A program made the position numbers and the translations under genes. From positions 1,426,001-1,490,000 of the forward strand of contig NZ_CP052757.1 of the NCBI RefSeq assembly GCF_009708005.2: a DNA stretch of 64,000 nucleotides, read 5' to 3'. The DNA is from Cellulosimicrobium protaetiae (GTDB lineage: Bacteria; Actinomycetota; Actinomycetes; Actinomycetales; Cellulomonadaceae). Under the pieces are notes generated by a model. The model was not told the origin of the DNA, did not search any database, and was given only the letters and a program-made list of their open reading frames with translations. The stretch's first letter is position 1, and every line of letters begins with the position of its first letter. This document shows positions 30,901 to 40,155 of the stretch, in pieces.

Positions 30901-31471
30901 GGGGGAGGGCGTGCGGGCCGCGCTCGCGCAGGTTCTCCCCGAGCACCTCGTGCCGTCCGCCGTCGTCGTGCTCGACGCGCTCCCGCTGACGACCAACGGC
31001 AAGCTCGACGTCGCGGCCCTGCCCGACCCGTCGCCGTCGTCGGCAGGACTCGCCGGTCTCCCGGGCGACGGCGCGGCCCCGGGCACCGGGCACGCGCCGA
31101 CCGCGGCCGAGGCGGCCGTCGCAGCCGCGTTCGCGTCGGCGCTCGACGGCGGCCACGTGCCGCCGGACGCCGACTTCTTCGCCCTCGGAGGCGACAGCAT
31201 CCGCGCGATCCACGTCGTCGCCCGGCTCCGGGAGGCGGGCTGGGGGTCGAGCGTCCAGGACGTCTTCGAGCAGCGCACGGTCGCGGCCGTCGCCGCGCGG
31301 CTGCACCCGATCGCCCCGCCCGCCGACGCGCCGACCGCTCCACAGGGAGACGACGGCGCCGGCTCGACCCGACCCGTCCAGGCACCGCTCCTCGACCTCG
31401 CTCCTGGCGACCTCGACCGGCTGGGCGCCCTCCTCGGCGACCGCCGACGGACACGGAAGGCACGACCATGA
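27932..31471 (+). CDS. NRPS 1: condensation-adenylation-carrier (C-A-T)
   Basis: An 1179-aa single-module synthetase expected to join dihydroxybenzoate to the first amino acid. Domains: C at about 28-430 with HHAILDA (His167, His168; Ala replaces the usual final Gly); A at about 490-1000 with [10 protein letters not shown] at 675, [11 protein letters not shown] and TGDLARR; T at about 1055-1125 with GGDSI, Ser1089. Pocket residues by alignment to GrsA read D-G-D-D-S-G-L-V-D plus the A10 Lys. The three extra Asp suggest a cationic substrate such as Arg, Orn or Lys (inference). The C domain follows the aryl carrier gene, so it is probably a starter C domain. A short Pro/Ala repeat lies inside the A-domain near residues 595-612. 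The TGATG junction couples it to the binding-protein gene. Confidence 0.93.
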
Positions 31472-37400: not shown

Positions 37401-40155
37401 CGTCGACGACCTGCGCGTGCTCGCGGCGGGCGGCGCGCTGCCGCCGGCGTCGGCGACCTTGCGGGAGGCCACGACCGCGGCGCACGAGGATGCCGCGCGC
37501 CGTACGGGCGAGCTCGCGGCGTGGGTCGACGTCCACGAGGGGCCCGCGGTGACGCTGACCGCGCGCCCCCTCGACCCGTCGCTCGACACGGTCGCGACCG
37601 CGCGCGAGGTGGTCGTCCGTCTGGACACCGACGACACGCGACGCCTGCTCGCGCTCGCCCCGGCCCACCGGACCGACCACGTGCTGCTCGCGGCGCTGTC
37701 GTGCGCGGCGGCCGAGGTCGCGCCGGGTGCGGGCGACCTCGTGGTCGAGGCCGAGGGGCACGGCCGCCGGCTGGACGGCGAGGGACCGGACCTGTCGCGC
37801 ACGGTCGGCTGGTTCACGACGACCTGGCCCGTCCGGCTCAGCGCCGCCACGGGCGGCGCAGCGACGGCGCACCTGCGCGCGACGGCCCGGCAGGTCGCGA
37901 CGGTCCCCGGCGACGGCCGCGCGTACGGGCTGCTGCGGCACCTGGTCCCGACGACGGCGCGCGTCCTGCGCGACGCGGCCGCGGCCTGCCCGCCCCAGGT
38001 CCTCGTCAACTACCTCGGCCGGGAGGTCGACGGCGCCGAGGACTGGTCGAGCGCCGACGACGCGGCGCAGGTCGAGTCCTCGCTCGCCCTGCACGCCGAC
38101 CTGCCGTTGTCCCACCCGGCCGAGCTCAACGCGTACGTGGCGGACGGCCCGGACGGGCCCGGCCTGCTGGCCCGGTGGCTCCTCGCCCCCGCGGTCGACG
38201 ACGCGGCCGGGGACGCGCTCGTCGAGGCGTGGGCCGCGCACGTGCGCGACCTCGTGCGGCGCGCCACGACGGAGCGTGCGGCGCCGGCGGCGGACGGCTC
38301 GGCCGACCGCGCGCCAGACGGTTCGGCTGACCGCGCGCCGGACCGGTCGGCGCACCGCGCCCCGGACGGGACCCCGTGGCCGCTGACGCCCGTGCAGCGG
38401 GGCATGGTGCTGCACGCGCTGGGCGCGCCCGTCGACCGGTACACGAGCGCCGTCGACGTGGGCCTCGACGGCCCGCTCGACGTCGAGGTCCTGCGCGCGG
38501 CCGCGGCCGACGTGCTCGCCGCGCACCCGCAGCTCCGGCTCGCGGTCGCCGCGCACGGCCCCGAGGACGTGGGGCTCGTCGTCACGGACGCCACCGAGGT
38601 ACCGCTGCGCGAGGTCGCCCTGCCCGCCGCGGTCGCGGCCGACCCGGGTGCCGCGCGTCGCGCGCTCGACGACTTGACGGCCGACGAGCTCGACACCCCG
38701 TTCGACCTCGCCAGCGCCCCGCTGCTGCGCCTCGTCGTGGTGCGCCTCGGACCGGACCGGCACCGGCTCGTGGTCACGAACCACCACGTCCTGCTCGACG
38801 GCTGGTCGGTACCGCTGCTCGTCGACGCCCTGCTCGGGGCGTACGCGCGGCGGGCCCGGACCGGCGACGCGGCGTCCCGCGCGCGGCCGACCGCGCCCGC
38901 CCCGGTCACGGCGTGGCGGCTCGCCCGGCGTCTCGCGCGTCAGGACCCGGCGGCGGTCGAGGCGTGGCGCGACGCCCTCGCGGGCGTCCGCCCGGCACGG
39001 GTCGCGGAGCCCGAGGACACGGGCGAGCGCCCGGCCGTCCTGCACGCGGCGCCAGACGGGCTGGGCGTGCGGCTCGCGGAGGCCGCGAGCCGTGCGCAGG
39101 TCACGACGGCCGACGTGGTCACGGCCGCGTGGGGGACCGTGCTCGCCGCCGTCACCGGGGCGCACGACGTCGTGACGGGGACGGTCGTGGCGGGTCGCCC
39201 CGCGGACGTCGAGGGCGCGCACGCGGTGCTCGGGATGTTCGTCAACACGGTGCCCGTGCGCGTCCCGATGGGGCGGTTCACGGGCACCGGCCCGGCAGGG
39301 ACCCTCCAGGACCTCGTGCGTGACGTGCACGCGAGGCAGGCGCTGCTGCGCGACGTCGACCACGTCGCGCTCGCCGACGTGCAGCGTGCGCTCGGGCAGG
39401 GAGAGCTCTTCGACACGCTCCTCGTGGTCGAGAACTACCCGCGCGACCCCGACGCGCAGCCGGGTGCGGCCGCGGGCCTCCGGGTGCTCGACGTGCAGGG
39501 CGACGACCGCACGTCGTACCCCCTCGCGCTGACGGTCGACGTGTCGGAAGAGCTGAGCCTGCAGCTCGACCATCTCGCCGTGGTCCCGCCGGCGCGGGCG
39601 GCGGCGGTGCTCGCCGCCGTGGTCGACGTGCTCGAGCTCTGCGCCGACCCGGCACCCGTCCCCGTCGCGCACGTCCTCGCGCGGCTCACCGAGCGGCACC
39701 CCGGGCTGCGCGAGGCGTCGCCCGACCCCACGGCGGCACCGGATCCCACCGCGGCCCCGGACCCCGGGGCGCCGGTCGCCGTCGTCCGCGAGGTGTTCGC
39801 GGAGGCGCTCGGCACCCCGCTCGTGGGCGACGACGACAACTTCTTCGCGCTCGGCGGCGACTCGATCGTCGCGATGCGGCTCACGACGGCGCTGCGCGGT
39901 CGGGGCTGGACCGTCGACCCACGGTCGGTGTTCGCCGCGCCCACGCCCGCGGCGCTCGCGCTGCGGTCCCGGCCCGTCGCGGTACCCGTCGCGGTACCCG
40001 CCGCAGCACCGGTCCCGGGCGCGCCCGCCCGCACGGCCGCCGACCCGGGCGCCACCGCGTCGGGGACCGCCACCGCTCCGCCGGCCGCCCCGCTCGTCTC
40101 GCTGTCCGCGGACGAGCTCGCAGGCCTCGACGACCTGATGAGGAACCTGACATGA
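31468..40155 (+). CDS. NRPS 2: C-A-T-C-T-E-C-T with two modules lacking adenylation domains
   Basis: A 2895-aa synthetase. Order and markers: C1 (HHLVLDG, His181), A ([11 protein letters not shown] at 717), T1 (GGDSI, Ser1110), C2 (HHLLTDG, His1342), T2 (GGDSI, Ser1768), E epimerase ([10 protein letters not shown], His1966; EGHGR; NYLGR), C3 ([10 protein letters not shown], His2439), T3 (GGDSI, Ser2799). Between C2 and T2, and between C3 and T3, there are only short linkers, so modules 2 and 3 have no A domain and must be loaded in trans. The A-domain pocket reads D-A-D-D-V-G-L-V-D plus Lys, again acidic. E after T2 predicts a D-residue, and C3 should accept it. Several linkers are tandem repeats, and C1 has a low-complexity insertion of about 60 residues. 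ATGA overlaps occur at both ends. Confidence 0.92.
32255..32410 (+). repeat. Ser/Thr/Gly/Asp low-complexity insertion in the first C domain
   Basis: Imperfect repeats of GACACCGGGTCCGG-like units encode runs of SDTGSG. The insertion falls between the N-lobe (ending [11 protein letters not shown]) and the C-lobe (starting [14 protein letters not shown]) of condensation domain 1. It keeps the frame and both lobes are intact. Confidence 0.8.
33091..33153 (+). repeat. 21-bp tandem repeat in the C1-A linker of NRPS 2
   Basis: Three copies of a 21-bp unit (33091-33111, 33112-33132, 33133-33153), differing at one base, encode GDTATxD heptapeptides between the condensation and adenylation domains. 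This is a flexible linker, and unit length preserves the frame. Confidence 0.95.
38285..38372 (+). repeat. Repeat in the E-C linker of NRPS 2
   Basis: About three degenerate 24-bp units encode [12 protein letters not shown] octapeptides between the epimerase domain and condensation domain 3. Copies differ at several positions, so this is an older expansion than the 21-bp repeat at 33091. Confidence 0.75.

What the first reader, a model, noticed from the sequence alone, without database searches (positions are those of the whole stretch)
31468..40155. Siderophore NRPS with two carrier modules lacking adenylation domains (C-T-E and C-T)
Direct reading of the 2895-aa protein gives C-A-T-C-T-E-C-T. 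Between His1342 (C2) and Ser1768 (T2), and between His2439 (C3) and Ser2799 (T3), there are no adenylation motifs at all, yet the C, T and E active-site motifs are intact. The line DHB-carrier, C-A-T, C-A-T, C-T-E, C-T, C-A-T-TE has five carrier sites for amino acids but only three A domains. One of them (or a remote A domain) must load two carriers in trans, one of which is then epimerised. A-less modules served in trans are known (for example in yersiniabactin synthesis), but this specific arrangement in a catechol-hydroxyornithine system is one I cannot match to a named siderophore.
Basis: partly seen in the sequence, partly recalled or inferred. Interest (0 to 1): 0.82.

Follow-up and report, generated by a model that had tools for sequence, protein, structure and literature searches.

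The report
Siderophore synthetase with two loader-less modules
A bacterium carries an iron-scavenger assembly line in which two of five stations lack their own amino-acid loading domain; the same layout is kept in five related species, so it looks like a real working design, most likely served by a neighbouring loading domain as in fungal ferrichrome synthetases.

Summary
The 2895-aa NRPS (31468-40155) is C-A-T-C-T-E-C-T: one A domain, three carriers, C/T/E motifs intact. With its neighbours the line is ArCP(DHB); C-A-T; C-A-T/C-T-E/C-T; C-A-T-TE. It is not an assembly collapse: the gene is colinear end to end in five species of another genus of the family, two of them single-contig genomes. 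The A-less domains are under purifying selection, while one of the two A-less linkers drifts in 4 of 5 genome pairs. The three A pockets are identical in six genomes. A1 and A2 are sister domains in an ornithine-type clade; A3 shares its code with, and is sister to, the hydroxyornithine A domain of cellulochelin-type lines. Two of the six genomes (drafts) show no NRPS-type A domain outside the cluster, so a remote trans A domain is unlikely. Best reading: A2 loads its own carrier and the next two (n+1, n+2), giving DHB-X-X'-D-X'-X'-hydroxyornithine, X basic, probably ornithine. Which A domain serves which carrier, and the product, remain unproven. Precedents exist (fungal SidC/SidD, mannopeptimycin C-A-T-C-T-E, capreomycin), so this is a new variant of a known kind, a distant relative (33-42% identity) of cellulochelin-type lines.

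The parts
19748..20407 (+). isochorismatase (EntB-like, no carrier domain); first gene of the conserved cluster
   Evidence: Pfam PF00857; orthologs 86-89% in the 4 relatives whose contig reaches it
20404..21189 (+). 2,3-dihydro-DHB dehydrogenase (EntA-like SDR)
   Evidence: Pfam
21290..22501 (+). isochorismate synthase
   Evidence: Pfam PF00425
22498..24288 (+). DhbE: stand-alone DHB-adenylating enzyme
   Evidence: Pfam PF00501; 55-57% to DhbE of two cellulochelin-type clusters
24285..25691 (+). ornithine N5-monooxygenase (makes hydroxyornithine)
   Evidence: Pfam PF13434
25688..26602 (+). ABC transporter ATPase
   Evidence: Pfam
26605..26847 (+). stand-alone aryl carrier protein (start codon not settled)
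   Evidence: Pfam PF00550; 83-86% orthologs in 5 of 5 relatives
26913..27932 (+). siderophore-binding protein (Peripla_BP_2)
   Evidence: Pfam PF01497
27932..31471 (+). NRPS1, 1179 aa: C1(starter)-A1-T1; A1 code DGDDSGLVDK
31468..40155 (+). NRPS2, 2895 aa: C2-A2-T2-C3-T3-E-C4-T4
31489..33069 (+). C2 domain
33148..34695 (+). A2 domain, the only A domain of NRPS2; code DADDVGLVDK in 6 of 6 genomes
34699..34911 (+). T2 carrier (FFAAGGDSI)
35083..36492 (+). C3 domain of the first A-less module (HHLLTDG)
36493..36678 (+). low-complexity C3-T3 linker where an A domain is missing; variable length, dN/dS near 1 in 4 of 5 pairs
36679..36882 (+). T3 carrier (Ser1768)
37000..38289 (+). E (epimerisation) domain, HHVAVDA and NYLGR
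38365..39702 (+). C4 domain of the second A-less module (HHVLLDG)
39769..39978 (+). T4 carrier (Ser2799), end of NRPS2
40152..44366 (+). NRPS3, 1404 aa: C5-A3-T5-TE; A3 code DMENLGLINK (hydroxyornithine type)
44377..44604 (+). MbtH-like protein
   Evidence: Pfam PF03621
44601..45965 (+). MFS exporter
   Evidence: Pfam
45962..46870 (+). siderophore-interacting protein (ferric reductase type)
   Evidence: Pfam PF04954/PF08021
46872..47828 (+). stand-alone (type II) thioesterase
   Evidence: Pfam PF00975
47879..48898 (+). FecCD permease
   Evidence: Pfam PF01032
49219..50277 (+). FecCD permease
   Evidence: Pfam PF01032
19669..19702 (+). conserved iron-box-like element upstream of the entB-like gene (a lead only)
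   Evidence: sequence; conserved among the window and 4 relatives aligned, G071 not included; the recalled 19-bp IdeR/DmdR consensus was not found within 3 mismatches

Best explanation
The cluster makes a catechol-hydroxamate siderophore on a five-module line. DhbE loads 2,3-DHB on the stand-alone ArCP; C1 (starter type) joins it to residue 1 on T1 (A1, basic residue, probably Orn). A2 (basic, probably Orn) loads its own carrier T2 and, across module borders on the same polypeptide, also T3 (n+1) and T4 (n+2), whose modules have no A domain. The residue on T3 is epimerised by E. NRPS3 adds N5-hydroxyornithine (A3) and the TE releases the product. Predicted backbone: DHB-X1-X2-(D)X2-X2-hydroxyornithine, X basic. 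SHOWN: architecture, its conservation, intact and selected active sites, A3/hydroxyornithine-type kinship, A1-A2 kinship. INFERRED: that A2 rather than A1 or A3 serves T3 and T4, the exact amino acids, linear use of the line, the form of release.
For: NRPS2 aligns end to end (residues 1-2895) in G099, G071, G119, G086 and G124, with the surrounding genes in the same order as far as the fetched contigs reach. The C, T and E active-site residues printed are the same in 6 of 6. dN/dS of T3, T4, C3, C4 and E is 0.11-0.47 over 5 pairs, against 0.13-0.69 for C2/A2/T2; the C3-T3 linker is about 1 in 4 of 5 pairs. NRPS-type A domains (TIGR01733): G071 and G086 have three each, all in the cluster, at 294 bits or more, the next matches at 158 and 175 bits. 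A1 and A2 are sisters (97*) in an 18-row group (support 92) with the Orn and hOrn A domains of cellulochelin-type clusters (labels from module order); Ser and Gly A domains lie outside; A3 is sister to the hOrn A domain (98*) and shares its code. A lone E domain right after T3 needs an alpha-aminoacyl or peptidyl group there (established knowledge). T5, the partner of A3, is the odd carrier (29-35% to T1-T4; T2-T3 49%; five genomes). Precedents: SidC A3 loads T3, T4 and, in part, T5 (passages of PMC10192304); mannopeptimycin C-A-T-E-C-A-T-C-T-E, second A serves both T (passages of PMC8949500); CmnA-A1 loads CmnI (PMC12400406, part 1 of 3 read).
Against: No loading was measured. T2-T3 similarity is not above that to some foreign GGDS-type carriers, so carrier kinship does not single out A2. 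No third bidentate ligand is obvious if X is plain Orn, unless the product is branched or dimeric as in cellulochelin, or a carrier takes hydroxyornithine. In nocobactin NbtD (C-A-T-C-T) the enzyme is proposed to bring in a fatty acyl chain by ester linkage (passage of PMC7413640), so A-less modules need not carry amino acids. The two genomes used to exclude a remote A domain (G071, G086) are drafts; the other three relatives and the window genome do have one further NRPS-type A domain each.
Confidence: 0.55

Rival explanations
1. A3 of NRPS3 loads T4 (and perhaps T3) with hydroxyornithine, giving two or three hydroxamate residues and thus hexadentate iron binding.
For: Supplies the missing ligand; A3 is of the hydroxyornithine type; SidC and SidD do this with hydroxamate residues.
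Against: A3 is on another, downstream protein; T5 differs most from T3/T4; no formyl- or acyltransferase for an internal N-OH was seen among the cluster genes scanned, though the rest of the genome was not searched for one.
Confidence: 0.17
2. A1 of NRPS1 loads T3 and/or T4 in trans.
For: A1 is sister to A2 and of the same substrate type; CmnA-A1 to CmnI is such a case.
Against: A1 is on a separate protein; A2 is nearer and in cis.
Confidence: 0.1
3. Modules 3 and 4 are passed over or only hand the chain on, so the product is shorter (DHB-X-X'-hOrn).
For: Would explain why no A domain is kept.
Against: T, C and E active sites are kept in 6 of 6 genomes and the domains are under purifying selection; an E domain would be pointless.
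Confidence: 0.1
4. A separate enzyme loads T3/T4 (remote A or A-T protein, or a non-NRPS ligase), or they carry a non-amino-acid group, compare the proposal for nocobactin NbtD.
For: Known for SyrB1/SyrE, and NbtD is C-A-T-C-T with a proposed acyl ester step; the window genome has one extra A-T protein at G000:C1:36947-38740, and G099, G119 and G124 have one further NRPS-type A domain each, not examined.
Against: G071 and G086 show no NRPS-type A domain beyond the three (draft genomes); the extra A-T lacks the pocket Asp and has no ortholog in four relatives.
Confidence: 0.07
5. Assembly artefact: A-domain repeats collapsed.
For: A domains are repetitive.
Against: Same junctions in six assemblies, two of the relatives single-contig, with different linkers.
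Confidence: 0.01

Closest known systems
Cellulochelin line (Cellulomonas sp. Leaf334; PMC13251462: outline with abstract, section 8 and passages seen) and fuscachelin (seen only through that paper and passages of PMC8097023; the original was not held)
   Same: DHB start, five amino-acid modules, hydroxyornithine module with TE at the end; similar dhb, MbtH, reductase and uptake genes; C2-C5 fall in one 99* clade with three of its five C domains; same A code for hydroxyornithine.
   Different: It has five A domains in two NRPSs, E in module 1, Gly and Ser at 3 and 4; here three NRPSs, no A in modules 3 and 4, E in module 3, and 33-42% identity between NRPSs. G082/G095 were called cellulochelin-type by me from domain order, not by sequence identity with Leaf334.
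Fungal ferrichrome synthetase SidC (and SidD)
   Same: A-less C-T modules downstream of an A domain that loads n, n+1 and n+2.
   Different: Fungal, terminal CT domain instead of TE, no E in the passages seen, acetyl-hydroxyornithine as the shared unit, no catechol. SidD has an inactive A domain rather than none.
Mannopeptimycin NRPS C-A-T-E-C-A-T-C-T-E
   Same: Bacterial C-A-T-C-T-E order with one A serving two carriers (review passage).
   Different: Antibiotic, one A-less module, n+1 only.
Capreomycin/viomycin CmnI/VioI
   Same: A-less module loaded by another module's A domain, shown for CmnI in vivo and in vitro.
   Different: Loading between proteins, not a siderophore.
Tistrellabactin MobG; nocobactin NbtD
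   Same: Bacterial siderophore lines with A-less carrier units.
   Different: MobG lacks C and A; NbtD (C-A-T-C-T) is proposed to take part in ester formation with a fatty acyl chain; chemistry differs.

Membership tests
A-less NRPS module served by another A domain | C and T present with intact active sites | tested here: met
A-less NRPS module served by another A domain | no A domain or A motifs between C and T | tested here: met
A-less NRPS module served by another A domain | a competent A domain elsewhere in the line | tested here: met
   sequence only: core motifs and pocket codes
A-less NRPS module served by another A domain | demonstrated loading of the A-less carrier | not testable with these tools
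   needs protein mass spectrometry
Fuscachelin/cellulochelin-type siderophore line | DHB genes, ArCP, starter C | tested here: met
Fuscachelin/cellulochelin-type siderophore line | five amino-acid modules ending in hydroxyornithine-T-TE | tested here: met
Fuscachelin/cellulochelin-type siderophore line | own A domains in modules 3 and 4 (Gly, Ser for cellulochelin) | tested here: not met
Fuscachelin/cellulochelin-type siderophore line | E domain in module 1 (cellulochelin) | tested here: not met
Fuscachelin/cellulochelin-type siderophore line | heterodimeric product with two DHB | not testable with these tools
   no metabolite data
Ferrichrome-type synthetase (SidC) | terminal CT domain, acetyl-hydroxyornithine as shared unit | tested here: not met
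   line ends in TE; the A domain nearest the A-less modules is not of the hydroxyornithine type

The most novel reading that the evidence does not exclude
A bacterial siderophore line in which one ornithine-type A domain loads three successive carriers in cis (n, n+1, n+2), one of them then epimerised: a bacterial counterpart of SidC that evolved separately in a catechol-hydroxamate line and makes an undescribed DHB-X-X'-D-X'-X'-hydroxyornithine siderophore.
Probability: 0.42. Interest if true: 0.65.

Novelty: new variant of a known kind. Interest (0 to 1): 0.52.

Why it matters
It gives a bacterial, conserved, six-species test bed for inter-modular loading: which carrier features let one A domain serve three sites, and how a line survives without two A domains. 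It also shows that product prediction that counts A domains would miss two of five residues here. A directly testable siderophore structure follows. Ordinary siderophore biology otherwise.

Tried and rejected
Assembly collapse: rejected (six assemblies). Remote A domain: disfavoured.

Idea that the single E domain serves several carriers, because T1-T4 all carry GGDS and C2-C5 all fall in the clade that holds all 15 reference C domains downstream of an E: not kept. GGDS is in 17 of 17 reference carriers before E, but also in 8 of 29 that precede C (cross-table), and the cellulochelin-type C domains that by module order take Gly and Ser donors lie in the same clade, so neither mark is diagnostic here. 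C2-C3-C4 formed one clade in two trees (95*; 93) but not once cellulochelin-type domains were added, so internal duplication of C domains is not claimed. All trees were the quick kind (SH-aLRT only). Rows left out: own C domains of only 3 of 6 genomes (C1 of 2) were used; four of six genomes for A1-A3, references from L003/L005 and A stretches under 420 aa were left out.

Carrier similarity as a pointer to A2: weak. TE as a pointer to the cellulochelin type: no signal (30-31% to it, 31-32% to other TEs). The genome-contig scan (six short patterns from one protein) gave 8 loci, only distant NRPSs, 29-38%. The plasmid scans gave only weak or distant hits. Same-genus hits G007, G012, G013 and G015 turned out to be lysine-type A-T proteins (code DAESIGTVVK, recalled as lysine), not siderophore lines. 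Literature: the ten searches brought up no paper with C-A-T-C-T-E-C-T in a bacterial siderophore line and no paper with the codes DGDDSGLVDK or DADDVGLVDK; most hits were seen as listings only, the nearest were mannopeptimycin (C-A-T-C-T-E) and nocobactin NbtD (C-A-T-C-T). The library lacks most subscription papers, and MIBiG/antiSMASH were not available. No structure prediction was run.
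Full report
WHAT IS THERE. The gene at 31468-40155 encodes 2895 aa and overlaps its neighbours by four bases on both sides. C-motif-to-Ser distances are 428 and 361 residues in the A-less modules and 930 in the complete module. Around it lie dhb genes, DhbE, an ornithine monooxygenase, a stand-alone carrier, an MbtH protein, export and uptake genes, and C-A-T and C-A-T-TE synthetases. Five amino-acid carriers and three amino-acid A domains: confirmed.

NOT AN ARTEFACT. 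The C3-T3 stretch has a 66-71% identical counterpart in four genomes of another genus of the family (5 of 101 genomes with a match, own included) and in a fifth species of that genus (5 of 7 genomes of it). It was in 0 of 16 same-genus genomes (longer query; 3 of 39 genomes matched at the cut-off, own included, the two others with generic 36-41% NRPS hits) and in none but its own of 198 genomes of the order (a sparse draw that scored at most 6 candidates a genome). All five hold NRPS2 end to end; two of them are single-contig genomes. NRPS2 is about 73% identical to the window's in the four first found (72.7-73.7%). The order of the other cluster genes is the same as far as the fetched stretches reach (in G071 the contig ends upstream of the binding-protein gene and carrier). 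Of the 12 window genes upstream of the cluster that I tested, none has an ortholog in the 3-7 kb fetched upstream in four relatives; downstream only 0.1-1.5 kb was fetched, enough to show that the small gene 50461-50910 is kept in 3 of 4. So the cluster may travel as a block; horizontal transfer is an inference.

STILL WORKING. The active-site residues of C3, T3, E, C4 and T4 printed are the same in 6 of 6 genomes. The C-T junctions hold low-complexity linkers of varying length between conserved domain ends (five genomes). Over five genome pairs dN/dS is 0.11-0.47 for the domains of the A-less modules, 0.13-0.69 for C2/A2/T2, and 0.39, 1.25, 1.19, 0.99, 1.14 for the C3-T3 linker; the C4-T4 linker is 0.42-0.66, so that one is not neutral.

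WHICH A DOMAINS ARE THERE. The pocket codes are identical in 6 of 6 genomes: A1 DGDDSGLVDK, A2 DADDVGLVDK, A3 DMENLGLINK. To calibrate them I looked for the nearest hydroxyornithine-type lines in the family (10 of 140 genomes with a match, 6 of them bearers of this cluster). Two genomes of genus g30 hold C-A-T-E-C-A-T-C-A-T plus C-A-T-C-A-T with dhb genes (in G095 the first gene is read in two pieces). That order matches the published cellulochelin cluster (D-Orn, L-Orn, Gly; Ser, N-hydroxy-Orn, TE; PMC13251462 section 8). By module order their codes are DSEDLGFVDK, DTIDLGLVDK, DAEQLGVVWK, DVEHVSLIDK and DMENLGLINK. The last equals A3. In a quick tree of 95 A domains A3 is sister to that domain (98*), A1 and A2 are sisters (97*), and these lie with the Orn domains (group of 18 rows, support 92), away from Ser and Gly. 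A1 and A2 keep Asp at three side-chain places of the pocket, which fits a basic side chain; ornithine is the likeliest (inference).

NO REMOTE LOADER, PROBABLY. With TIGR01733, G071 and G086 have just three NRPS-type A domains, those of the cluster; the next matches drop from 294 and 297 to 158 and 175 bits (both are drafts). The window genome has one more, an A-T protein at G000:C1:36947-38740, whose pocket reads FVTVLR where Asp235 is expected (my reading) and which has no ortholog in the four relatives tested (best matches 31-35%). G099, G119 and G124 each have one further A domain above 290 bits elsewhere, not examined.

HOW IT MOST LIKELY WORKS. T3 and T4 are then loaded by A1, A2 or A3. 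A2 is in cis, next upstream, and of the right general kind. In SidC, A3 loads T3 and T4, and T5 in a two-protein assay at about 35%, and the C domains of the A-less modules are modelled as touching A3 (passages). Mannopeptimycin shows C-A-T-C-T-E in a bacterium (passage). E after T3 implies an alpha-aminoacyl or peptidyl group there. A3 as donor would add chelating groups and cannot be excluded; its own carrier T5 is the least like T3 and T4. T2-T3 likeness is no higher than to some foreign GGDS carriers, so this point is weak.

RELATION TO KNOWN LINES. C1 groups with starter C domains; C2-C5 form one 99* clade with three of the five C domains of the cellulochelin-type lines, and C5 is nearest to their hydroxyornithine C domain (93). 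NRPS3 is 41-42% identical to that final module; NRPS1 39-40% and NRPS2 33% to their best counterparts. The TE gives no extra signal. So this is a distant homologue of the cellulochelin type with a different middle. It fails that family's own A domains in modules 3 and 4, so it is not filed as a member.

NOVELTY. A-less modules are known; two in a row, one with E, behind a single A domain in a bacterial catechol-hydroxamate line did not come up in the searches named under Tried and rejected. The host genus is not named by any tool; the window's G+C of 76% and its kin suggest an actinobacterium of the family that here also holds the cellulochelin-type clusters (inference).

Noticed in passing
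L025/L026 (G071:C55), NRPS1 end: In G071 the last conserved residues of NRPS1 lie in another frame than its body, and the body runs on in frame into NRPS2 (open frame 4585 aa): a frame change that fuses the two, real or a draft error.
   Followed up: partly
L041/L047 (G000:C1:36947-38740): Stand-alone A-T didomain protein with an unusual pocket, near a C-domain match on the other strand (G000:C1:39051-39977): perhaps a second small NRPS-like locus of unknown product.
   Followed up: partly
L059-L066 (G007, G012, G013, G015): Same-genus genomes carry A-T proteins in open frames of 1450-2208 aa with code DAESIGTVVK, resembling epsilon-poly-lysine synthetase (recalled).
   Followed up: partly
L086-L088 (G048, G068): A three-module C-A-T-C-A-T-C-A-T line with three similar basic-type codes (DADEAGFVDK, DADEAGLVDK, DADELGLVDK), product unknown to me.
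   Followed up: no
window 8044-19574: Urea/branched-chain-type ABC transporter genes, GntR/FCD regulator, urea amidolyase-like carboxylase and allophanate hydrolase next to the cluster; no orthologs in the 3-7 kb fetched upstream in four relatives.
   Followed up: partly
L016 3910-9258 (Nonomuraea longispora): An unrelated NRPS whose last module reads C-T followed by a thioesterase-like end, without an A domain.
   Followed up: no
window 50461-50910 (-): Small gene without a Pfam match that keeps its place beside the second FecCD gene in three of four relatives' stretches (73-78%).
   Followed up: partly
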